From the IMG/VR virus record IMGVR_UViG_3300010401_000046, positions 1 to 44,971 of that record: a stretch of 44,971 bases of DNA, one strand, 5' to 3'. Shown here one piece after another: positions 2 to 34,403 of this stretch (the first letter of the stretch is position 1; each line of letters starts with the position of its first letter). A program made the position numbers and the translations under genes. The DNA comes from a virus. The notes under the pieces are model-generated. The model had not been told where the DNA came from, did not search any database, and saw nothing but the letters and a program-made list of their open reading frames with translations.

Positions 2-805
2 GATTATTACAATGAACCGATGGCTTGTTTTTCTATAGCTGCTCACGAACACTCAACAATGTGATTGTGGAAAAAGGAACATGAAGTAGACGCCTTTCGA
101 AACATGCTTGAAAAATATGGTGGTCAGGGACAAATATTTGCATGTGTTTCCGACACCTATGACATTTTTAACGCTACTTCTAATTTATGGGGCGGAACTC
201 TTCGAGAGGAAGTTATCAATAGTGGTAGCACTTTGGTGATTCGTCCAGATAGTGGTCATCCTGCAACAATAGTGTTACAGGTGTTACAACGATTGGAAGA
301 AAAATTTGGAATTACAATCAATTCGAAAGGATATAAGGTTCTTAACAACGTCCGTGTAATTCAAGGTGACGGCATCGAATATGATTCTATCGCTGAAATT
401 TTATCAGTAGCGACAGACGCCGGTTATTCTGCAACAAATATTGCGTTTGGAATGGGTGGAGCACTTCTTCAAAAAGTGAATCGAGATACTTTCAATTTTG
501 CTCATAAGGCGTGTTATGCGGTCGTAAACAATGAACTAAGGGATATCTATAAAGACCCAGTAACAGGTAGTTGGAAGAAGAGCAAATCTGGAGACCTCGA
601 TTTGTATAGTTGTTATGATAGCAACGGAAAGAATTATAAAACACTCGTTCCGAACAAGTCACATATTCATCTCAAAAATGGTGATTTGTCATGGCTTCCT
701 TCTGCGACTCGGATTGTTTACGAAAATGGTAATATCGTTGTAGACGATACGTTCAGTGCTATTCGTGCTCGGGCATGCGAAACCTTAGATTTACCAACAG
801 TATGA
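2..805 (+). CDS. nadV: Nicotinamide phosphoribosyltransferase (NAMPT/NadV), C-terminal part, with in-frame TGA at 62-64
   Basis: The enzyme makes NMN from nicotinamide and PRPP, the first step of NAD salvage. The gene is open at the window's left edge. Family landmarks run in order: an SIAAHEHST segment holding the phospho-accepting His (bases 32-58), SDTYDIFN, IRPDSGHP, VIQGDGIEYD and AFGMGGALLQK, then a C-terminal KDPV/KSKSGDL region. These align with the C-terminal half of vertebrate and phage NAMPT. The oddity is a TGA at 62-64. It sits exactly in frame, directly after EHSTM, where homologues have an ordinary residue; the frame then continues as LWKKEHEVDAF. No Shine-Dalgarno precedes the TTG at 65, so a separate second gene is unlikely. 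It could be a nonsense mutation, readthrough or a sequencing error. Family assignment is very secure; whether it is functional is not. Confidence 0.92.
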
Positions 806-981
806 ATACAGAAAAATGGACCACAATAGACAACACCATTAGAGTTGCTCCAAGCTCTTATCCCATGCGTACGACGAACAAACGTATCTGCATTGATTGT
901 GGAGATTCGTTTCACTCTAAAAGAATGGCAGAACGATGTTCCGTTTGCTTGATAAAATGGCTTGTTAAGTTAGGCGAATGA
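802..981 (+). CDS. Small zinc-ribbon-like protein (59 aa)
   Basis: The start is the ATG at 802, which overlaps the NAMPT stop (ATGA); the stop likewise overlaps the next start at 978, so translational coupling is likely. The protein has two Cys pairs, CIDC and CSVC, separated by about 16 residues with basic residues between them. This is typical of a one-zinc knuckle that binds nucleic acid or protein. No family recognised. An upstream ATG at 775 would extend it further inside NAMPT and is less likely. Role unknown; it is co-transcribed with NAMPT and the DUF4406 gene. Confidence 0.7.
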   Translation: MNTEKWTTIDNTIRVAPSSYPMRTTNKRICIDCGDSFHSKRMAERCSVCLIKWLVKLGE

Positions 982-1331
982 AATTTGCAAGTGTTTTTAT
1001 TTCAGGACCATATTCTGGTGACGTTGAAGAGAACGTTCGTAAAGCACTTGAAGCTGCTGATTCGTTAATGGCTTTAGGTTACGTACCATACGTTCCTCAT
1101 CTTTGTCACTATTGGGAACTTAAGAGTCACAAGTCTTATGAAGAATGGAATTGTTACTTTAATAAATGGCTTACGATTTGTGACTACGTTCTTCGATTAC
1201 CCGGAGAAAGTTCAGGAGCAGATGCAGAAGTAAAATTGGCAAATGAACTTGGAATTAGAGTTGTTGACTCAATTGATTCTTTGGTGATAGCTTCTGCTTG
1301 TTATCCTTTGGGAAAGGAAATTGAAACTTAG
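978..1331 (+). CDS. DUF4406 / nucleoside 2-deoxyribosyltransferase-like protein
   Basis: This 117-residue protein has the Rossmann-like layout of the nucleoside 2-deoxyribosyltransferase superfamily (DUF4406 branch). An N-terminal strand leads into SGPYSGD (9-15). An EENVRKALEAADSL helix follows, then GYVPYVPHL, and then RLPGESSGADAEVKLANELG (73-92), where the Glu of the SGA.AE segment is the expected catalytic or ligand-binding acid. Phage members are usually annotated as hypothetical; superfamily members act on nucleosides or bind nucleotides. The start overlaps the preceding stop. Together with NAMPT it suggests nucleotide and nicotinamide metabolism, but the substrate is unknown. Confidence 0.8.
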   Translation: MKFASVFISGPYSGDVEENVRKALEAADSLMALGYVPYVPHLCHYWELKSHKSYEEWNCYFNKWLTICDYVLRLPGESSGADAEVKLANELGIRVVDSIDSLVIASACYPLGKEIET

Positions 1332-1740
1332 CAAATCATCAATAGCGTATTTGGAACTTCTAAGTCTGAATCTTGGTTGTATTAGATGATGAGAGACTGA
1401 ATTTGTAACACTTCTAATCCATTGCGATGTGTGCGACATGTTAGACAATGGAAGCTGGCGATTCGCACAAAGACCAGAGGCAGTGTTACTTTGAATTATC
1501 ATAATGAGAGCGGACTGCTCTTGATTAAAAACGGTTACGACTGACAACCGGGAGTCTGTGAAAAAGTCGTTATTAGTAACAGACGTGAATTTCTCTCATC
1601 AAAGTCCGTTTGGTTTTGACGAATCAGCGGACTCTAATTTTAATAGAAGTTTGAACACAGTTCAAATGGTGGAGTGGATGAATCAATCATCCCCAAACAA
1701 AAATTCCCACTTGATGAGATTCAAGTGGGTTTTGTTTTAT
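1332..1740 (+). ncRNA. Candidate structured non-coding RNA (~400 nt) ending in an intrinsic terminator
   Basis: No convincing protein is encoded here. A GTG-initiated frame from 1558 crosses the terminator and is not protein-like until the ATG at 1753. Perfect inverted repeats are dense: 1405-1412 with 1482-1489 (8 bp) encloses 1419-1424/1446-1451 (6 bp) and 1455-1458/1474-1477 (4 bp), forming a multibranch junction. Simple hairpins follow at 1507-1521, 1532-1550, 1554-1584, 1603-1633, 1650-1666 (7 bp, 3-nt loop) and 1676-1692. Upstream, 1335-1340/1385-1390 and 1363-1367/1394-1398 interleave, which would allow a pseudoknot. A textbook terminator closes the region. No tRNA, tmRNA, RNase P or group I intron core was recognised. 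The exact 5' end is unknown. Confidence 0.6.
1706..1738 (+). terminator. Intrinsic terminator
   Basis: A perfect 9-bp stem (1706-1714 with 1721-1729), 6-nt loop TGAGAT, followed by TTTTGTTTT (1730-1738). It ends the structured-RNA region 15 bases before the exonuclease ATG at 1753. The exonuclease therefore needs its own promoter or depends on readthrough. Confidence 0.85.
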
Positions 1741-1752
1741 AAAAACAAGAAT

Positions 1753-2397
1753 ATGAAAAATCTAAAATCAGTTTGGAAAATTTGGAATCAGTTAGACCGA
1801 CTGTTTGGACGCGTCCAAATTCCTTGTAAATACGCAAAGAACATTGTCGTGATTGATTGTGAAACGACCGGAACCAATGCAGGTTATCATGAGTCTTTTG
1901 AATGGGGTGCGATTTTGGTCGATGGTCACACTTTTGAATCTATTGGAGAACTTTGTTGGAGGCATAAAATTCTATATCCTGAACGAGCTACTTCGAAAGC
2001 CATGAAAGTTAACGGTCAGTCTTTAGAAGAACTTTCAACATTGCCGATGACAGAAGCTCAATTTGTTAAGAGCTTTCATTCATTTTTTATTAAAAGCTCT
2101 TCTATACGTCTGTGCGCTTGGAATGCTGGTTTTGATGTGGCGTTTCTTAAAGCTGCTTATGAGCGAACAGGATACCAAAAAGAGTGGGAAGAAATAGACC
2201 ATCATATCATCGACCTGTGGACCATCTTTGACTACTACAATCATACTCGCTTGAATGGTTCAAATACTAATTGGCTTGGCATTACAGGGGCAGCAAAGGC
2301 TCTTAATATCGAGATACCAAAAGACCTCAATCTTCATCGTGCTCTTGATGATTGTAAAATTGAATACCTTATTTTGAAAAAGCTGTTTCAAATTTGA
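1753..2397 (+). CDS. DEDDh-family 3'-5' exonuclease (DnaQ/RNase T-like)
   Basis: This 214-residue protein has all the DEDDh exonuclease motifs. Exo I is VVIDCETTG with D35 and E37. Exo II is WNAGFDVAFL with D128. Exo III is HRALDD with H195 and D200. These two-metal enzymes remove 3'-terminal nucleotides from DNA or RNA; there is no polymerase domain, so it is a stand-alone exonuclease like RNase T or the Pol III epsilon subunit. I chose the ATG at 1753 because the frame extending upstream to 1558 runs through a strong terminator and is not protein-like. The leader is A-rich with no Shine-Dalgarno. RNase H follows after a 31-base gap, so an RNA-primer or nucleotide-recycling role is plausible. 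Confidence 0.88.
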   Translation: MKNLKSVWKIWNQLDRLFGRVQIPCKYAKNIVVIDCETTGTNAGYHESFEWGAILVDGHTFESIGELCWRHKILYPERATSKAMKVNGQSLEELSTLPMTEAQFVKSFHSFFIKSSSIRLCAWNAGFDVAFLKAAYERTGYQKEWEEIDHHIIDLWTIFDYYNHTRLNGSNTNWLGITGAAKALNIEIPKDLNLHRALDDCKIEYLILKKLFQI

Positions 2398-5615: not shown

Positions 5616-5714
5616 TTTTCTAAAAGAAATAAATAAAACAACCCTAGTTTTTGAACTTCAAAGTGAAACTGCTGGTTGTATCATCATAAGTTACTTAACA
5701 AAACAATTAAACAC

Positions 5715-6815
5715 ATGAATGATACACTCGATTTAAGTAATGTTCTTAAAGGAACAGGAGTCATCTCAACAGCGGTCGGCCCAAAGCATCTTTTGGATGT
5801 TAATCCAGACGAGGGAACTATTGTCGGCTGTCTTAACAGCAATGATAACATTTATCATCGTTCAACATCGAAGAATTGGACTGAACAATCGTATGGTAAT
5901 CTTCCTTACGAGCGTTTGGAAGGCGTAACAATCGAAAATCTTCTAACTAAGACCCACCTCGATTGGCAGGTCAACAAGGTTCCTCTATACACAGAGGTTG
6001 GTGATTCGAAGATTCTTGTTCCAGATTATTACGGAACGTTACGAGAAGATACAAATGAAGTTCTCGGAATCGTGAAGTCGCGATACGAAGTATTGCAAAA
6101 TTCACAACTCGTTGACGCTGTCACACCGTTCATGGAAATCGAAGACCTGTGTCTTGAATCGGGCGGTTATTTCAGTGACAACAAGAACAACCGTGCTGGT
6201 CACAAGGTCTACATTCAATTCAAGCTTCCAAATTACATCACAGTAAACGGAGACCCGACAGAAACAATGCTGTTCATCAGCAATTCGCATGATGGAACGT
6301 CTGGAGTGTTCATTGGATTGACGTGCGTTCGTACTGTATGCCGCAACACGTTTCAGATGAATTTAAACAGTGCTTCTATTCGTATTCGTCACACAGCAAC
6401 GATGAACGACAAAGTCATTCAAGCATACAAGACTTTGAACATTGCAAATCAGCTTACGACGCAACTCAATGACATCTTCAACCAGATGTCGAGTGTTTCT
6501 GTCAACACGAAGCAAATCAACGAGGTTCTTACACTTGTTGCGACTCCTGAGTACAAGCAAAAGGGTAAGGAAAACGAGGAGCAGAGTACGCGCATCAATA
6601 ACATTGTTGCTGACATGAGCGAGTGGGTTGAGAAGGAGTTCAACAGTTCTCCGGCACTCAACGGCAATATGTATGGACTTTGGAATGGCATTACGGCTTA
6701 TTACAATCATGGTGTAAACTTCCGTAAATCAGACCGGTTCAATCAAATTATCATGGGCACGTCTGCAAAGAAAATGGATAAGGCATTTGGTATTCTTACC
6801 AAGACGTTAGCCTAA
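5715..6815 (+). CDS. DUF932 phage/plasmid-like protein
   Basis: This 366-residue protein matches the DUF932 (phage/plasmid-like protein) family. The central part is typical: KSRYEVLQNSQLVDAVTPFM, a middle segment with IQFKLPNYITVNGDPTE, then LFISNSHDGTSGVFIGLTCVRTVCRNTF, followed by a helical region with RIRHTA. The family is common on large phages and plasmids, often near replication or recombination genes, and its function is unknown. I chose the ATG at 5715; an earlier in-frame ATG at 5676 adds 13 unconvincing residues. No Shine-Dalgarno, A-rich leader. Confidence 0.88.
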   Translation: MNDTLDLSNVLKGTGVISTAVGPKHLLDVNPDEGTIVGCLNSNDNIYHRSTSKNWTEQSYGNLPYERLEGVTIENLLTKTHLDWQVNKVPLYTEVGDSKILVPDYYGTLREDTNEVLGIVKSRYEVLQNSQLVDAVTPFMEIEDLCLESGGYFSDNKNNRAGHKVYIQFKLPNYITVNGDPTETMLFISNSHDGTSGVFIGLTCVRTVCRNTFQMNLNSASIRIRHTATMNDKVIQAYKTLNIANQLTTQLNDIFNQMSSVSVNTKQINEVLTLVATPEYKQKGKENEEQSTRINNIVADMSEWVEKEFNSSPALNGNMYGLWNGITAYYNHGVNFRKSDRFNQIIMGTSAKKMDKAFGILTKTLA

Positions 6816-7670: not shown

Positions 7671-7744
7671 GGGCCTTTAGCTCAGTTGGTTAGAGCAACC
7701 GACTCATAATCGGTAGGTCGTAGGTTCAAGTCCTACAAGGCCCA
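7671..7744 (+). tRNA. tRNA with CAT anticodon (tRNA-Met or tRNA-Ile2)
   Basis: A complete cloverleaf is visible. The acceptor stem is 7671-7677 with 7737-7743 (7 perfect pairs). The D arm is 7680-7683/7693-7696 and the anticodon stem 7698-7702/7710-7714, with loop CTCATAA and anticodon CAT at 7705-7707. The T stem is 7720-7724/7732-7736 with loop TTCAAGT. The discriminator base is A; the 3' CCA is not encoded. The GACTCATAATC stem-loop and GGTTCAAGTCC T arm resemble bacterial tRNA-Ile2, whose CAT is modified to lysidine to read AUA. Elongator Met shares much of this, so identity is left open. Confidence 0.95.
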
Positions 7745-7760
7745 CAATAAAAACAAGATA

Positions 7761-10122: not shown

Positions 10123-12405
10123 TTACATCTCTTTCCTATGTGCAAGACGGGTCCACAAATCATCATCATGGTCATTACCACCTTTACTATGATGCATTTT
10201 GTAAAGATTGTCAAGCCATTTTTTTACATCCAGAGAATCAAGGTCTGTTTCAATCCGAATCCAATGATGTTTCTTTTTCTTGTGTTTGGGATGATGCATG
10301 TGCCCTTTTGATGTCGATTGAACAGGCTCTTCTCCCATTGGCGGAGAACCTGCTGGTATTTGAGTATCAGTAGCGTTTCGTGTTGCTGTTGGAACTTCTG
10401 GTTCTGTTTGCGGCTCTTCTTCTGGTTCCTCTGTTGTTGGGACCGTTGGATTTGAAATGGGTACTTTTGGATTCTTTGGTTTTTTTATTGGAACTTTTGG
10501 AACAACAGGTTGAGCAGTTGGAGTCAAATCCGTATTGTCTGGCGTCATGGTCCTTTGAGTTGTTGTCGTTGGAGCTTTTTCGCCTCCAATAACCGGCGCG
10601 TTCGGATTGTGTAAATTGAGTTTTGATTGTAACATATCAACAATAGTCGCAATCCATTTGTCGATGTTTGCAACTAATCCTGCAAGATGCTTGCAACAAA
10701 TTCCTCTCTGATTTGGATTTGTTTTGTTTGGTGGTCGTCTTTCCTTCTGGTCTGCAAAATTGGATTTGTTGAACCAAGCAAGGTATTTAAACCCTCCAAA
10801 AGTAAAACTGTTATGCACATAAACACCAGATGCTAACGCAAAATTTTCTGTATCAGGAACAGAAATATCATACAGAGGCGTAGGTTCAACATCAATGATT
10901 TTCACAGAAACTATCTTGTGATTTTTCTTTGAATAAAAATCCAATGACTCTTTAAACGACTCAAATAATTTTTCAGGATAAGGAGTTGTTTTTCCCTTAT
11001 ATGTTAGAAATGTTGATTGTGTTATCTCAAGATTGTTTGATTTTATTTCATCATAAACTTTAAACAATCTACCAATCAGTTGATTTCTAATAATGCGAGG
11101 GTCTTTATTGCGCTGTCTTGTTTTCTCCTTCGATTTTTCAGATTGGTTTATTGAAATCAATCTTGATATGTTTTTTTCTCTACCTTTTTTGTGGTTTTCT
11201 ATAAAATTTGAATCATTCCACAAGTTGTTAATTAATTTGGACGCTCGAACAGAATATTCTTCTCGAAGCTTTGGGTCGTTTTCAAGTCTTAACTTTACGC
11301 CGGTACCATTCTTTACTTTTTCGCTTACTTTTATAGACTCAATGGCCTTTTTATGAACTTCTGGATTTGTTGCAAAATTATTTTTCTTTCCGTTTTCTCT
11401 CATTACCTCGACATGAGACTTATAATAGTCTGGGTCATCCCAATATTTCCATGTTTTTGAAAGACGCTCGGTTCCTTCCTTTGCATGATGCTCCCAATGT
11501 TCTTTTATTCCCATCCACAAAAGATTTGATGGAACATTATTTGTTTTGTTTGCGTCAACGTGATGAGATATTAAACAACGTTCACCAACTTTAGAACGCC
11601 ATTCCATTTTTTCTTCGAAATACGAATCGTTAACAGTTCGATTTACGACCGTATGAGTTTTCTTTTTCTTTCCATCATTATCGAAAACAGTTTCATAACC
11701 ATCGACAATTTCCGTATAAAGAGGCATCAACGAATCACCTGCCATTAAGTATTTTGCCTCTTTATATGAACCATCCCGAAGTCTCCATTGATGATTTAAA
11801 GAACAGCGTTCAGTAATTCCGTTATCCAGAGTAACTTCTACAATTTGGTCAACCGTTTTAGTTATTCCTAATGCAGTCGCTTCTTTGGGCACAAAATTTC
11901 CGTTTTCATCGGAAGAATAAATCCAATATTTCTCTCCTTCTACAAGTTCATCAATTCTCTTGTTTGAGCCATCAAGCATTTTGATGAGAGTCTCGCCTAC
12001 AAAACATTCACAACTGCAGTAGAAATTTGTGTGTCCGTGTCTTAAAAAACCATTGACAACAAATGCAGTAAGTGCTGGTTTGTTATTTCGAATGAGAAAT
12101 AAACGCTGTGCTGTTTTCCACTTATCTTTATCGAGACGTTTATTGATTTGGAATTGAGAGGTGTGATTCCGACCGGAACCTTGCCCACCTTCTTCTTTCG
12201 TTAGAATATCTCGTGTGTAAAAAGAAATGATGAATTGCTCTGTATCAATGTCCTGAAAACTTGCCTCAATTTGAAATCGTTTTGCAATGGGAGCCTTTTT
12301 GTCTTTGCTCATGCGAAGCAAATCAGAAAACATTAATTCGTTCAGTAATTCTTCTTGCTGGTAAATGTCGCCTTCCAATAAAAGAAATTCTTCCATGATT
12401 TTCAA
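10123..12405 (-). CDS. SWIM zinc-finger protein interrupted by an HNH intein
   Basis: The 760-codon precursor is a 361-residue host protein plus a 399-residue intein. Extein residues 1-133 end in FYCSCE; after the intein the sequence resumes as SFTFGGFKYLAWFNKSNF and continues to GICCKHLAGLV. Joined, this gives CxC...CxH, the zinc ligands of a SWIM domain. The C-terminal ~150 extein residues are low complexity (Pro/Thr/Glu-rich, then a His/Lys-rich HPKHKKKKHH patch), suggesting a disordered virion or DNA-contact tail. Function is unknown. The gene is preceded by an overlapping 104-aa gene and followed by a ParB-fold gene on the same strand. Confidence 0.85.
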   Translation of the reverse strand: MKIMEEFLLLEGDIYQQEELLNELMFSDLLRMSKDKKAPIAKRFQIEASFQDIDTEQFIISFYTRDILTKEEGGQGSGRNHTSQFQINKRLDKDKWKTAQRLFLIRNNKPALTAFVVNGFLRHGHTNFYCSCECFVGETLIKMLDGSNKRIDELVEGEKYWIYSSDENGNFVPKEATALGITKTVDQIVEVTLDNGITERCSLNHQWRLRDGSYKEAKYLMAGDSLMPLYTEIVDGYETVFDNDGKKKKTHTVVNRTVNDSYFEEKMEWRSKVGERCLISHHVDANKTNNVPSNLLWMGIKEHWEHHAKEGTERLSKTWKYWDDPDYYKSHVEVMRENGKKNNFATNPEVHKKAIESIKVSEKVKNGTGVKLRLENDPKLREEYSVRASKLINNLWNDSNFIENHKKGREKNISRLISINQSEKSKEKTRQRNKDPRIIRNQLIGRLFKVYDEIKSNNLEITQSTFLTYKGKTTPYPEKLFESFKESLDFYSKKNHKIVSVKIIDVEPTPLYDISVPDTENFALASGVYVHNSFTFGGFKYLAWFNKSNFADQKERRPPNKTNPNQRGICCKHLAGLVANIDKWIATIVDMLQSKLNLHNPNAPVIGGEKAPTTTTQRTMTPDNTDLTPTAQPVVPKVPIKKPKNPKVPISNPTVPTTEEPEEEPQTEPEVPTATRNATDTQIPAGSPPMGEEPVQSTSKGHMHHPKHKKKKHHWIRIETDLDSLDVKKWLDNLYKMHHSKGGNDHDDDLWTRLAHRKEM
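10810..12006 (-). mobile_element. Intein (399 aa) with HNH homing endonuclease
   Basis: Coordinates mark precursor residues 134-532. The N-terminal splice block starts with Cys134 in CFVGETLI. A block-B-like CSLNHQW follows, and the protein ends with LYDISVPDTENFALASGVYVHN, where the terminal HN precedes Ser533 as the +1 nucleophile. These are the residues needed for standard Cys/Ser splicing. Internally, an HNH-like centre (CLISHHVDANKTNNVPSNLLWM, about 277-298) and a long basic helical region indicate a homing endonuclease. The splice junction lies inside the SWIM zinc motif, a conserved site as is usual for inteins. Confidence 0.9.
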
Positions 12406-13674: not shown

Positions 13675-14256
13675 ATGATTTGGGAACAAGAGATACAAAC
13701 AATACTGGCTCACATTGAAGAATTAAAGAACAAAGCTAAAGTCTGGCTCGTTCTTAGTGTGGGTATCAGCGGTTCAGGAAAAAGCACTTTCATATTTGCA
13801 TACTCTAAGCAACTGGAGAACAGTTGTATTTCTTATGAGGTTGTGTGTCCAGACCAATTGAGGAAAAAGTACGGCACCAGTGTAAACGACCAGAGCGTTA
13901 ATGGGAAGGTTTGGGACGTTGCAAGAAGACAAGCTGTCAAGGCGTTTGAGAATGGAAAACAAGTGGTTATTCTTGACGCTATGAATATTCGGGCCAAGGA
14001 ACGTAAACAGTTTATGAAGTATGTTAGAGACAGGCTTCCAGATTTACATCTTTATACCCAAGCCTTTGTGTTTCCAGTCGATGCGGAACTTTCTAAACAA
14101 CGCATACAGGAAGATATCAGCAATGGGCTTGATAGGGCAAATGTTCCGCCAGAGATTATCGACAAAATGACAGAGATATACGTCAATGGTTTGAAAGACA
14201 TTGAGAGAGAGTTTGATGTAACGATAACATTTAAATCATGTTTGAAAGACTCATAG
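13675..14256 (+). CDS. P-loop polynucleotide/nucleotide kinase-like protein
   Basis: This 193-residue protein has a Walker A motif GISGSGKST (30-38) after a hydrophobic strand. The next strand leads into VVCPDQLRKKYGT, the 'D..R...G' lid/substrate loop found in T4 Pnk-type 5'-kinases, and VVILDAMNIRAKERKQF matches the kinase's 'D.(T/M)N.....R' segment. Length equals an isolated kinase domain; the phosphatase half of T4 PseT is absent. It would phosphorylate RNA or DNA 5'-OH ends (known of the family) and, with the ligase at 17034, could repair cleaved tRNA (inference). It overlaps the next gene by 19 bases. Confidence 0.78.
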   Translation: MIWEQEIQTILAHIEELKNKAKVWLVLSVGISGSGKSTFIFAYSKQLENSCISYEVVCPDQLRKKYGTSVNDQSVNGKVWDVARRQAVKAFENGKQVVILDAMNIRAKERKQFMKYVRDRLPDLHLYTQAFVFPVDAELSKQRIQEDISNGLDRANVPPEIIDKMTEIYVNGLKDIEREFDVTITFKSCLKDS

Positions 14257-17033: not shown

Positions 17034-18275
17034 GTGTCCCTAGAAATTCAAAAATATCTTAGAAGTCACTCCGAAGAAGAAGCTGTATCTTACTTTGAAA
17101 ACGAACTTGGTCTGAAAATAAATCGCAAAGATGGTTTTGCGTTGTTTAATTATGACCAAATTAAAAGTCCAAAGGACCATCCAATTGTAAAAGAATCGCG
17201 AGGTCTTATTTTGAAAGATAAAACGTGGGAGCTTGTTCTTCTACCGTTTACTCGTTTCTTCAATTATGGTGAAGGTTGTGCTGAAACTATAGACCTATAC
17301 ACAGCAACGATTCAATCGAAAGAAGATGGTTCTCTTATGAGTCTTTGGTATGATGGGACTCAATGGCAAGTCTCGACCAGAAAAATGATGTATGCAGAAG
17401 GAATTGTACAACATCCATTTCTTGCATCAGAAATGACATTTGCTGAACTCTTCTTTTCTGTGTTTGATAGAAACAAGCTGCAACATCTTTCTAAAGATAG
17501 CAGCTACTCATTTGAACTATGTACTTCGTACAATCGAATTGTGAAGAAGTATGACGAGTCGAAGATATTTCTGTTGTCAGCACGCGACAACAGAAACGGA
17601 TTGGAATATTCGTCTTTGTGTTTATCAATATTGGCTGAAAAGTTAGGAGTGCGACGACCAAAAACATACAGTCTTGCAACCGACAACTATGAAGAATTAA
17701 AAAAGACGATGGAAGCGTTTCCACCGGATGAAGAAGGTTATGTAGTTGTGGATGAGAAATCTTTTGAGGGCGATGCAGCTTGGTCAACTTATCGTCGTGT
17801 GAAGTTCAAGAATCCTCGATACGTTCTTTTGCATCATACGCGAATGAGTCTCAGCATTCGTAATTTTATCGAGCTTATCTTCGCTGGAGAAGTAGACGAA
17901 TTTGTCGCCTATTTTCCGGAGTACGCACATTATGTCGATAACATCTTGAAGATATATTACGAGTTCTTGGCAGAGCAGAGTTTCAATGCATTTACACTAC
18001 TTGCAAAGCTTCATGGACCTCTCAAAAACACAGAACGTAAAGAACGGGCAAGATATATTCAAGGTCTGAACATAACACCTCAATTGATGTATTATGTGCT
18101 TGATAAACCAAAAATTGATGCTCGGTCGTATTGGTCTGAGATAGCTAAGAAGAAGATTGATTCCTTTATTAAAATCATTGGATTCATTGAGAAGTTGGCG
18201 ATAGATGAAAATACAACACTTAATGTATCTGATAATTCTATGTTGATAAAAACAGGAGGTGATGATGAGCTTTGA
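17034..18275 (+). CDS. T4 Rnl1-like RNA ligase
   Basis: A 413-residue ATP-dependent RNA ligase of the T4 Rnl1 (RnlA) type. Motif I is SKEDGS with K96 as the adenylated lysine. It is preceded by VKESRGLIL and FTRFFNYGE, as in Rnl1, and followed by EEGYVVVD (motif IV) and YRRVKFKNPRYV (motif V). The C-terminal ~120 residues would be the helical tRNA-recognition domain. It seals 5'-PO4/3'-OH RNA ends, classically tRNAs cut in the anticodon loop. The GTG at 17034 is the first possible standard start after an in-frame TAG. It is followed by a strongly translated small gene and Thg1, making an RNA-repair block. Confidence 0.92.
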   Translation: MSLEIQKYLRSHSEEEAVSYFENELGLKINRKDGFALFNYDQIKSPKDHPIVKESRGLILKDKTWELVLLPFTRFFNYGEGCAETIDLYTATIQSKEDGSLMSLWYDGTQWQVSTRKMMYAEGIVQHPFLASEMTFAELFFSVFDRNKLQHLSKDSSYSFELCTSYNRIVKKYDESKIFLLSARDNRNGLEYSSLCLSILAEKLGVRRPKTYSLATDNYEELKKTMEAFPPDEEGYVVVDEKSFEGDAAWSTYRRVKFKNPRYVLLHHTRMSLSIRNFIELIFAGEVDEFVAYFPEYAHYVDNILKIYYEFLAEQSFNAFTLLAKLHGPLKNTERKERARYIQGLNITPQLMYYVLDKPKIDARSYWSEIAKKKIDSFIKIIGFIEKLAIDENTTLNVSDNSMLIKTGGDDEL

Positions 18276-18627
18276 AGCAAAAGTAAGAATGCGCGAATAT
18301 GGAAAAGACCTTTCAAATGGAGAAAAAGACATTGTATTTGAAATGGATTCAAACGGTTTGGTCAAAATAACGATTATCAATTTGAATCTAGAGTGTTGTC
18401 AAGTTGGAGACACTTGTCAATTATGTCGTGGAGAATCCATTAACCTTTATATCGACGAACTCTTTGAGCATCTTTCGAAATTGAAAGCAGCAAATGATAT
18501 TGGAAGAGAACCGGAACAAAAGCCAAATCCAAAACCGTTTTTCGGTATGCATCAGTTTGATAAATTGTTTCATTCGCAACCTCATATAACTTGCCAATGT
18601 CAAAGTTGTGTGACCAGCAGATATTAA
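18265..18627 (+). CDS. Hypothetical Cys-rich protein (120 aa)
   Basis: The start at 18265 is set by an AGGAGG Shine-Dalgarno (18254-18259) within the ligase gene, 5 bases upstream; the ATG at 18262 and the GTG at 18259 are also in frame. Features are a CCQVGDTCQLCRGES cluster in the middle and CQCQSC near the C-terminus, so up to two metal sites. No family recognised. It sits between RNA ligase and Thg1 and has one of the best ribosome-binding sites in the window, suggesting high expression. Confidence 0.7.
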   Translation: MSFEAKVRMREYGKDLSNGEKDIVFEMDSNGLVKITIINLNLECCQVGDTCQLCRGESINLYIDELFEHLSKLKAANDIGREPEQKPNPKPFFGMHQFDKLFHSQPHITCQCQSCVTSRY

Positions 18628-18631
18628 GAAA

Positions 18632-19426
18632 ATGGCTAAGACAGATACATTAGGAGACCGCTGTAAAGCATACGAAGAATCAACGCGATTTGTTCTTCCA
18701 CCAAGAATCCCAAAGATTCTGCGATTGGATGGGCGAGCATTTCATACATTTCTTCGTAAAGCAGTTCGACCGTATGATATAGATGTAATGAAGGCGATGA
18801 TTGATGGTGCTATAACCGTCATGGAAGATTTGGGAGGTATCGCCCGATTTGCTTACATTCAAAGTGATGAGGTAACGATTGGTATTAATGACGCAATTGA
18901 ACTCGACACTCAAATGTATTTTGGAGGTAATATCCAGAAGATTGTATCAGTATGTGCTTCAGTTATGGCTAATGCTTTTAACAGACATTACGGTCATGCA
19001 AAGACTGATGAAAAAGTATATGAAACGTTAGAGTATGAATTGTATGGTCCTTCTTATCCTCTTGCTTCTTTCGATGCAAGAATTTTTACCGTACCAGACA
19101 GAGACTTAAATAATGTGGTGCTCTGGAGACAACAAGACGCTGCACGCAATTCCGTTCAACAATATGCCAGATTTTATTTCTCGCACAAAGAGGTTACTAA
19201 AAAGAATGTTTCGCAACTTCAGGAAATGATGTTTTCAAAACACAACTTCAATTGGAACGATGCTCGACCATGGACAAAACGAGGAGTTGTGATTGGTCCG
19301 GACAGAAATGTGATATGGGATATTCCCTTGTTCTCTCAAGATAAGGAATTTTTGCCCAAGCTATTCTGGCCAGAAAAAGAATCCGTTGAAATTAACACGG
19401 TGCCGAAAGATGAAGTGTGCGCCTAA
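18632..19426 (+). CDS. Thg1-like tRNA(His) guanylyltransferase / 3'-5' RNA polymerase
   Basis: This 264-residue protein matches the Thg1 superfamily. ILRLDGRAFHTFLR carries the first metal-binding Asp (D33) and the 'GR.FH.F' nucleotide loop. YIQSDEVTIG holds D79/E80, and further family blocks are PLASFDARIF and WRQQDAARNSVQQYARF. Thg1 proteins add G to the 5' end of tRNA-His; Thg1-like proteins repair 5'-truncated tRNAs by templated 3'-5' addition. The window's only tRNA is not tRNA-His, so repair of host or phage tRNAs is the more attractive inference, given the neighbouring ligase and kinase. Confidence 0.9.
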   Translation: MAKTDTLGDRCKAYEESTRFVLPPRIPKILRLDGRAFHTFLRKAVRPYDIDVMKAMIDGAITVMEDLGGIARFAYIQSDEVTIGINDAIELDTQMYFGGNIQKIVSVCASVMANAFNRHYGHAKTDEKVYETLEYELYGPSYPLASFDARIFTVPDRDLNNVVLWRQQDAARNSVQQYARFYFSHKEVTKKNVSQLQEMMFSKHNFNWNDARPWTKRGVVIGPDRNVIWDIPLFSQDKEFLPKLFWPEKESVEINTVPKDEVCA

Positions 19427-32158: not shown

Positions 32159-32332
32159 TCAAGTACACACTAAACTTTGAACTTCGACAGAAATCGGAAC
32201 AAATTCTGCGTCCACTGTCAATTTTGGTTTTCTTTTTGGAGTCTCATCTACTATGATTTCATAACTTTGCAAGTTCCGTGGTTTTTGCCAGTAAACATCA
32301 TCCAAAACTTCTTGTAATTGTTTTTGAGTCAT
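32159..32332 (-). CDS. Small hypothetical protein (57 aa)
   Basis: An ORF from ATG 32332 to TGA 32159, lying 3 bases before the next gene's start. The sequence is MTQKQLQEVLDDVYWQKPRN, then a central YEIIVDETPKRKPKLTVDAE and a hydrophobic end. It reads like a real small protein and its position in a tight minus-strand run supports it. Function unknown. Confidence 0.5.
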   Translation of the reverse strand: MTQKQLQEVLDDVYWQKPRNLQSYEIIVDETPKRKPKLTVDAEFVPISVEVQSLVCT

Positions 32333-32633
32333 GTTGTTTATAGATTATAAGACCAACGGCAACAGAGGCCGAAGTATCAGGATTTCGACTTTACCTGAAG
32401 TTCCATTAAAAGCGTGTTGCCACACATTGGTCGTTTCGATACTTACAACAAGGTGGGTATCGACCACCATCCTCAAAAACAACAGCAAATGTTAAACAAC
32501 TAGTCGCACGTGTTTAAACCATTCTGCTGTTCTCGATTCATCCATTTTTACCTGTTACGTGGAAATGGAACCACGTTCGGTATGTTTTACGATACCTGCG
32601 CAAATCTTACAACCACGACATCAAATGAGAAGT
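32333..32633 (-). other. 301-base non-coding stretch with several inverted repeats
   Basis: No supported gene lies here, although flanking genes are on the same strand and almost all other genes in this block abut. Inverted repeats include a GGTGG/CCACC hairpin with 7-nt loop (32451-32467), an overlapping CGATAC...GTATCG pair (near 32437 and 32457), CAGG...CCTG (near 32379) and ACGTGG/CCACGT with 8-nt loop (near 32557-32576). These overlap partly and could be alternative folds. It is a candidate regulatory leader or small RNA for the downstream genes. A 17-codon ORF is also present but unsupported. Confidence 0.35.
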
Positions 32634-32960
32634 TCAATTTGACCAATCAACAATCAAATATTCTTCTCCTACAATCGCCACAAGTTGACGCATGTGCCTT
32701 TCATATTCTGACCACGATTTTGATTTTGTAATGTGTTTCACATACTTCCACATTTTCCATTCTTGAACTCGTTTTTCACGATGTGTCATCTCTTTAACTG
32801 ACTTGTCGGAAGAAGGACAACAAGACCGTTTCAGGATTGAATAGAACCTAATAGCACGACGCATTATTTTTTGACGGTCTTCAATAGAAGCGTCTTCATA
32901 CTGCTTCTGGTCCCATCGAATGTAATATCGTATTGGGCTTGGTGTTGTGTCTTTAGCCAT
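32634..32960 (-). CDS. Hypothetical basic protein (108 aa)
   Basis: The start is the ATG at 32960 (MAKDTTPSPIRYYIRWDQKQ); an ATG six codons upstream is also in frame. The protein is strongly basic and helical: EDRQKIMRRAIRFYSILKRS, MTHREKRVQEWKMWKYVKHI, EYERHMRQLVAIV. It may bind nucleic acid. No family recognised. It is divergent from the methyltransferase-like gene. Confidence 0.55.
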   Translation of the reverse strand: MAKDTTPSPIRYYIRWDQKQYEDASIEDRQKIMRRAIRFYSILKRSCCPSSDKSVKEMTHREKRVQEWKMWKYVKHITKSKSWSEYERHMRQLVAIVGEEYLIVDWSN

Positions 32961-33180: not shown

Positions 33181-33729
33181 ATGGGACTAATCATTCTACC
33201 GCTGTTCAAAGCAGACATTTTTATAGAAACCGGCACTTATCGAGCGGAATCATTGCAGGTCGCAATTGATAGTGGTTTCTATTCTGAATTTCATTCTATA
33301 GATGTAGACGAAGAGTTGATTTCAAAGGCGCAAGCCAAATACGCCAAACAAGAAAACGTACACATTTACCTTGGAACATCTCCAGATATTCTCAGAGAGA
33401 TTCTACCAAATCTACTTAACAAAACCATTCTATTCTGGCTCGATGCACACTTTCAAGGAATATCGAAAACAGAATTGGATTTGAAATATGGAGAATGCCC
33501 ACTTTTGGAAGAGTTGAAGGTCATTAAAGAACTTGCACCACACTCTATTATCTTTATTGATGATGCTTTTATGTTCGGTGAATCGTTTTGGACCACAGCC
33601 CCTCACGCTCATCTCTTTAAGAGAGACCAATGGCCAACAATTAAAGAGATTGAAGACTCACTGCAAAGCACACACATCCTCAGTCTAAACGGAAACATCA
33701 TTTACTGTTTACCGAAATTTCAGCAGTAA
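33181..33729 (+). CDS. Class I SAM-dependent methyltransferase-like protein
   Basis: The product (182 aa from ATG 33181) has a motif I-like IFIETGTYRAESLQVAI and an acidic second strand HSIDVDEELISKA (the ribose-binding acid). Next come VHIYLGTSPDIL and ILFWLDAHF, then IIFIDDAFM. This is the usual order for class I methyltransferases, of the kind that modify glycans or small molecules; the substrate is unknown. The frame is open back to 32947 with possible ATGs at 33073 and 33091, but the upstream part is not protein-like. It is a lone plus-strand gene whose stop overlaps the convergent sigma gene by 10 bases. Confidence 0.65.
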   Translation: MGLIILPLFKADIFIETGTYRAESLQVAIDSGFYSEFHSIDVDEELISKAQAKYAKQENVHIYLGTSPDILREILPNLLNKTILFWLDAHFQGISKTELDLKYGECPLLEELKVIKELAPHSIIFIDDAFMFGESFWTTAPHAHLFKRDQWPTIKEIEDSLQSTHILSLNGNIIYCLPKFQQ

Positions 33730-34403
33730 TATAAATCTTTGATTGATGCGTATGAATCCTTCAATTGAGCGCGGTACTTTGTGATGTCCCTCGTATTCAG
33801 GTTAGAAAGGGCACGCAACATTATATAAAGATGCCTTTTCTTTGACAAGTCAATGTTATTTCTGGATTCCAGTATCTGTATGATATATTTGAGTAGTCTG
33901 TTTCTATCCTTTTTGTTTTGCAATCGAAACAGGAGAAAGTCAACAAACTCTTCGTCCATCTTTGTCAAATATGAATTATCGACTAGCACTGAGTTTTTTA
34001 GAAATTCTACCTCGATAAGTGTGAGAGTTTGAATGTTGTTCTTTTTATGTTCTTCGGTCTTATCAAATATTCGAACGTATTTTTTCTCTCGGTTGATAGC
34101 ACTCCACAAAAAGTTACGAGCGCAAGTATTGTAGTAAGAGAACGGCTTATCTCTTAAATCATACATCTGTATTGCCTCAATAAGATGTGACAAGCAGTCT
34201 TGCTTAACGTCCTCAATATTTGGAATTTGATTGAGTTTATAACCATCAACATAATGTTTAATCAACTTCAAGAAAGCAGGAATAACAATGTTGTTTAGTA
34301 GCTTTTCTTCCTTCGATAATTCAAGAATTTGTTGTGTGTTACCAGCCCATTTGTTTTTGAAATATGTAAGTGCTTCTTGAACCTCACTGCCAAAGTAAAT
34401 CAT
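33720..34403 (-). CDS. Putative T4 gp55-like late sigma factor
   Basis: A 227-residue basic/helical protein. The segment from NIVIPAFLKLIKHYVDGYKL through IEDVKQDCLSHLIEAIQMYD to KPFSYYNTCARNFLWSAINR resembles sigma region 2 as it appears in T4 gp55-type late sigma factors: 'D......L......YD....PF.Y........I.......'. There is no region 4, as expected for gp55. It would direct the host RNA polymerase to late promoters. The assignment rests on pattern only. It lies with accessory genes about 5 kb downstream of the capsid genes. Confidence 0.6.
   Translation of the reverse strand: MIYFGSEVQEALTYFKNKWAGNTQQILELSKEEKLLNNIVIPAFLKLIKHYVDGYKLNQIPNIEDVKQDCLSHLIEAIQMYDLRDKPFSYYNTCARNFLWSAINREKKYVRIFDKTEEHKKNNIQTLTLIEVEFLKNSVLVDNSYLTKMDEEFVDFLLFRLQNKKDRNRLLKYIIQILESRNNIDLSKKRHLYIMLRALSNLNTRDITKYRAQLKDSYASIKDLYYC

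What the first reader, a model, noticed from the sequence alone, without database searches (positions are those of the whole stretch)
1332..1740. Possible new ~400-nt structured RNA with its own terminator
The largest gene-free stretch in a densely packed region contains at least nine perfect inverted repeats. They include an 8-bp long-range helix enclosing two further helices and an interleaved pair compatible with a pseudoknot, and the stretch ends in a textbook terminator. It does not match tmRNA, RNase P, tRNA or group I intron cores that I could recognise. Large phage RNAs such as GOLLD and ROOL show such regions can be genuine ornate RNAs, so an undescribed class is possible.
Basis: partly seen in the sequence, partly recalled or inferred. 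Interest (0 to 1): 0.75.

Follow-up and report, generated by a model that had tools for sequence, protein, structure and literature searches.

The report
Orphan structured RNA in a phage
A stretch of a virus of bacteria that holds no gene appears to make a roughly 350-letter folded RNA with its own start and stop signals, but no relative of it could be found anywhere, so its class and its job are still unproven.

Summary
The gap 1332-1752 in a phage fragment has far more compatible helices than chance allows. Total helix energy with pseudoknots allowed gives z about -5, no shuffle in 1,000 reaches it, and the region ranks first of 893 windows in the record. The features are a 10-bp closing helix, an 8-bp helix around two interleaved 7-bp helices (a pseudoknot), two hairpins with 6 complementary loop bases, and an intrinsic terminator.

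Rfam (gathering and E<=10), ARAGORN and DNA searches of phages and plasmids find nothing. No IMG/VR or genome contig gave a relative, so covariation could not be tested.

New here: a bipartite element GAACTTC-N13-TGGTTGTA lies at 1354-1381. The identical element occurs exactly twice more in the window, both times in other gene-free gaps: 37 nt before a start codon (5653-5680) and before a second pseudoknot-rich gap (32601-32333, minus). Best reading: a ~350-nt structured RNA with its own promoter and terminator. Whether it acts in trans or as leader of the exonuclease gene 14 nt downstream is open; the one antiterminator found is thermodynamically disfavoured.

The parts
1354..1381 (+). Bipartite promoter-like element GAACTTC-N13-TGGTTGTA; predicted RNA start about 1387-1389
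   Evidence: Exact copies only at 1354(+), 5653(+) and 32635(-) in the window, all in gene-free gaps; 0 expected in shuffles. Promoter role inferred from the copy 37 nt before the ATG at 5718.
1387..1738 (+). Proposed structured RNA (RNA1), about 350 nt
   Evidence: Fold z -4.4, 0 of 200 shuffles; helix-energy rank 1 of 893 windows.
1387..1396 (+). P2, 5' strand of 10-bp closing helix (partner 1592-1601)
   Evidence: Perfect 10 bp; mean pair probability 0.96 when folded from 1387.
1592..1601 (+). P2, 3' strand
1405..1412 (+). P3, 5' strand of 8-bp helix (partner 1482-1489) enclosing the pseudoknot
   Evidence: pair probability 0.94-1.0
1482..1489 (+). P3, 3' strand
1418..1452 (+). Pseudoknot stem 1 (1418-1424/1446-1452, 7 bp)
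   Evidence: Interleaved with stem 2; probabilities 0.43 and 0.56 sum to about 1 in a pseudoknot-free model.
1430..1469 (+). Pseudoknot stem 2 (1430-1436/1463-1469, 7 bp)
1502..1527 (+). Hairpin 4 (10 bp with one bulge, loop GGACT)
   Evidence: pair probability 0.83-1.0 for its inner 6 bp
1532..1550 (+). Hairpin A; loop ACGACT (1537-1542) complementary to the loop of hairpin B
   Evidence: loop-loop pairing inferred from sequence
1554..1584 (+). Hairpin B; loop AGTCGT (1565-1570) pairs with hairpin A loop (putative kissing pair)
1603..1633 (+). Hairpin 5
1649..1667 (+). Hairpin 6 (8 bp); replaces the doubtful outer helix 1355-1362/1644-1651
   Evidence: Pair probability 0.84-1.0 when folded from 1387, against about 0.2 when folded from 1332.
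1676..1692 (+). Hairpin 7 (6 bp)
1706..1738 (+). Intrinsic terminator (9-bp stem, TTTTGTTTT tail)
1753..2397 (+). Exonuclease (RNase T / DnaQ-like) gene starting 14 nt after the terminator
   Evidence: PF00929, phrog_192
978..1331 (+). Upstream gene, DUF7768/DUF4406 (nucleoside deoxyribosyltransferase-like)

Best explanation
The gap encodes a stand-alone structured RNA of about 350 nt. Transcription starts from a phage promoter-like element at 1354-1381 near 1387-1389 and stops at the intrinsic terminator at 1706-1738 (start inferred, terminator predicted). The RNA folds into a closed domain (P2) holding an 8-bp helix with a pseudoknot, a hairpin and a pair of loop-complementary hairpins, followed by three hairpins and the terminator. 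It most likely works in trans as a folded RNA, in the manner of other large phage RNAs; the downstream exonuclease is served by read-through of a leaky terminator (inferred, untested).
For: Helix content far above chance, with all main helices mutually compatible once the start is set at 1387. Terminator. Promoter-like element found exactly three times, always gene-free, once at promoter distance from an ATG. 5' end predicted at the closing helix. No coding support. Precedent: ICP1 makes its most abundant transcript, about 800 nt and noncoding, from an ORF-less gap (PMC7567579).
Against: No homologue and hence no covariation. Nothing shows a transcript. The terminator sits 14 nt before a start codon with no room for another promoter, which also suits a leader RNA. 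A shuffle control cannot separate RNA structure from DNA-level inverted repeats.
Confidence: 0.5

Rival explanations
1. The RNA is a cis-acting leader of the exonuclease operon: the promoter at 1354-1381 drives leader plus exonuclease, and the terminator is an attenuator governed by the fold (metabolite, protein or ribosome).
For: Only 14 nt separate the terminator from the exonuclease ATG and no other consensus promoter was found between. The terminator repeats 8 nt of the P2 strand (TGATGAGA at 1387-1394 and 1712-1719), so 1594-1602 can pair with 1711-1719 (9 bp; chance of a 9-bp match to the terminator about 0.012). The second pseudoknot-rich region also sits between the same promoter element and a start codon.
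Against: Forcing that antiterminator costs 10-15 kcal/mol and the terminator stays at probability 0.996 even without the P2 5' strand. A leader of 350 nt with pseudoknots would be unusually large. No aptamer matches in Rfam.
Confidence: 0.3
2. The inverted repeats are chance plus ordinary intergenic hairpins (terminator, small palindromes); the gap is just a promoter, spacer and terminator with no functional folded RNA.
For: Single sequence only; four windows from other phage contigs score higher, and the one read holds plain hairpins. Some statistics were chosen after seeing the region.
Against: 0 of 1,000 shuffles, rank 1 of 893, still extreme without the terminator, and two independent loop-crossing pairings inside one closed domain.
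Confidence: 0.13
3. A DNA-level element (replication origin, regulator or packaging site) whose inverted repeats work as double-stranded sites.
For: Fold statistics are as strong on the minus strand. GAACTTCT has its complement AGAAGTTT only at 1645(+) and 32312(-), each downstream of an element copy.
Against: Helices of different sequence, nested and interleaved, rather than repeated sites; terminator and promoter geometry fit transcription.
Confidence: 0.07

Closest known systems
GOLLD and ROOL RNAs (large ornate phage RNAs)
   Same: Phage-encoded, multi-helix with pseudoknots or kissing loops, function unknown (PMC12286853).
   Different: Much shorter than GOLLD (many over 800 nt); no Rfam match; not beside a tRNA island (the only tRNA in the window is 6 kb away); oligomerisation unknown.
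ICP1 abundant noncoding transcript (PMC7567579)
   Same: Noncoding RNA from an ORF-less gap of a virulent phage; not in a tRNA array.
   Different: About 800 nt; transcript shown by RNA-seq there, only predicted here.
Attenuator or riboswitch leaders
   Same: Promoter, structured RNA, terminator and gene in that order.
   Different: No known aptamer; the one antiterminator found is disfavoured.
tmRNA
   Same: 350-400 nt with pseudoknots.
   Different: No tRNA-like domain, no tag reading frame recognised; ARAGORN and Rfam negative.

Membership tests
GOLLD / ROOL / HEARO | Match to the Rfam covariance model | tested here: not met
   No hit at gathering score or at E<=10
GOLLD / ROOL | Location near phage tRNA islands (usual, not universal) | tested here: not met
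   One tRNA-Met at 7671-7745, 6 kb away
tmRNA | tRNA-like domain with tag reading frame | tested here: not met
RNase P / group I / group II intron RNA | Rfam core match; interruption of a gene (introns) | tested here: not met
   both neighbouring genes are intact at their junctions with the gap
Attenuator / riboswitch leader | Terminator directly upstream of the regulated gene | tested here: met
   Terminator ends 14 nt before the ATG at 1753
Attenuator / riboswitch leader | Alternative antiterminator of comparable stability | tested here: not met
   10-15 kcal/mol worse; terminator probability 0.996
Independent phage ncRNA | Own promoter and terminator | tested here: inconclusive
   Recurrent promoter-like element and terminator found; activity not tested
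Independent phage ncRNA | Conserved, covarying structure | not testable with these tools

The most novel reading that the evidence does not exclude
This phage lineage carries a set of large pseudoknotted RNAs (RNA1 at 1387-1738 and a second at about 32601-32333 minus) expressed from a dedicated phage promoter, forming an undescribed class of phage structured RNA.
Probability: 0.22. Interest if true: 0.72.

Novelty: new variant of a known kind. Interest (0 to 1): 0.48.

Why it matters
Large structured RNAs of phages such as GOLLD and ROOL are few and their roles unknown. A shorter example with a clear promoter-like element and terminator, and possibly a second one in the same genome, would be easier to express and probe. 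If it proved a leader instead, it would be an unusually elaborate gene-control RNA in a phage.

Tried and rejected
Rfam at gathering score and at E<=10: only chance hits. tRNA/tmRNA: none in the gap. DNA relatives in 50,697 phages and 72,556 plasmids: none. Neighbour proteins as bait in IMG/VR (exonuclease, DUF4406, NAMPT, a putative head protein): no relatives. Tail sheath alignment: 80 loci, one at 65% identity on a 17.5-kb contig that shares only the sheath gene. Sheath alignments in genome contigs: one 34% relative. An RNA pattern and a protein-motif DNA pattern in viral contigs: nothing syntenic. Single-sequence covariance model over held loci and 12 whole phage records: nothing significant. 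Terminator/antiterminator switch: disfavoured. Homology of the two RNA regions beyond the shared promoter element: not significant (the model of RNA1 does not find the second region). An exact match of the AACTTCT-N12-TGGTTGTA pattern in Synechococcus phage B23 is coding, so chance.

Full report
What is there. The window is a 45-kb linear virus record from a tailed phage with a contractile tail: sheath, major head protein, NAMPT, RNase H, ParB-like, Thg1 and RNA ligase genes. The gap in question lies between a DUF7768/DUF4406 gene ending at 1331 and an exonuclease gene that most likely starts at ATG 1753. The longer GTG-started ORF (1558) runs through the terminator and its extra N-terminus matches nothing.

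Is the structure more than chance? Pseudoknot-free folding gives z -3.3 to -4.4 with the terminator and about -2 to -3 without it. The gap has 11 perfect helices of at least 7 bp against 3.6 expected, and an interleaved pair that no shuffle equals. When helices are chosen greedily with crossing allowed, the region gives z -5.2 to -5.5, 0 of 1,000 shuffles, and the best score of any 339-nt window of the record. Over 9,411 windows of phage DNA, GC-corrected, it ranks 5th; the four above it come from three contigs that share a DUF7768 gene, and the one I read has simple long hairpins. Fold statistics are as good on the minus strand, so strand rests on gene direction, the promoter-like element and the absence of a minus-strand terminator at the low-coordinate end.

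Where does the RNA begin? A bipartite element GAACTTC-N13-TGGTTGTA lies at 1354-1381. It occurs exactly three times in 45 kb (0 in shuffles), always in gene-free DNA although only 9.6% of the window is gene-free. One copy (5653-5680) ends 37 nt before the ATG of a DUF932 gene, ordinary promoter distance. Read as a promoter (TTGAAC-like, 18-nt spacer, TG-extended TTGTAT/A), it places the start near 1387-1389, the first base pairs of the 10-bp P2 helix. Folded from there, P2, P3, hairpins 4, 5, 6, 7 and the terminator all have high pair probabilities, and the two pseudoknot stems share the probability between them. The outer helix 1355-1362/1644-1651 then falls outside and is replaced by hairpin 6. 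This is inference: no transcript data exist. One fact does not fit easily: the complement of GAACTTCT, AGAAGTTT, occurs only twice in the window, at 1645(+) and 32312(-), each some 300 nt downstream of an element copy. I cannot say whether that is coincidence.

A second region. Ranking windows by helix energy also picked 32333-32634 (minus), the second largest gap. It has three H-type pseudoknot candidates (ACGTGG/CCACGT with TCCATTT/AAATGGA; GGTGG/CCACC with TCGATAC/GTATCGA; TCAGG/CCTGA with GTCGAA/TTCGGC) and greedy z -4.6, and it follows the same promoter-like element (32635-32608). Plain folding is weak there (z -1.7). It has no Rfam or phage DNA match and no significant alignment to RNA1 beyond the element.

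What does it do? Two readings remain. As a stand-alone RNA it would resemble GOLLD, ROOL or the ICP1 transcript in kind, not in family. As a leader it would control the exonuclease that starts 14 nt after the terminator. The only antiterminator I could find reuses eight bases shared by P2 and the terminator loop, but is 10-15 kcal/mol worse than the terminated fold. I favour the stand-alone RNA at about 5 to 3.

Limits. So absence of relatives here is weak evidence, and covariation remains untested.

Noticed in passing
window 32333-32601 (minus strand): Second gene-free, pseudoknot-rich stretch (three H-type pseudoknot candidates) downstream of the same promoter-like element; no Rfam, ARAGORN or phage DNA match.
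   Followed up: partly
window 1354-1381(+), 5653-5680(+), 32608-32635(-): Bipartite element GAACTTC-N13-TGGTTGTA, three exact copies, all intergenic; likely a phage promoter. A weaker relative lies at 2396-2423 before RNase H.
   Followed up: yes
window 1645-1652(+) and 32305-32312(-): AGAAGTTT, complement of the element's GAACTTCT (with a G-U pair), occurs only at these two places, each about 300 nt after an element copy; unexplained.
   Followed up: partly
window 62-64: In-frame TGA inside the NAMPT gene near the contig end (EHSTM*LWKKEH), while many other genes end in TGA; assembly error, mutation or recoding not resolved.
   Followed up: no
window 10123-12405 (-): 760-aa protein with an intein splicing domain and a weak HNH endonuclease match.
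   Followed up: partly
window 33720-34403 (-): Weak match to sigma-70 region 2 (below the Pfam cut-off); a phage sigma factor might read the promoter-like element.
   Followed up: no
window 1532-1550 (-): Terminator-like hairpin on the minus strand (CGGTTGTCAGTCGTAACCG then TTTTT) inside the RNA region; it is the complement of hairpin A.
   Followed up: no
window 17034-19426 (+): T4-type RNA ligase and a Thg1-like tRNA-His guanylyltransferase, with an AAA_33 kinase at 13675-14256: possible tRNA repair set.
   Followed up: no
L102: Tail sheath of 34% identity in a contig binned to a Flavobacteriales genome; faint hint of host group only.
   Followed up: no
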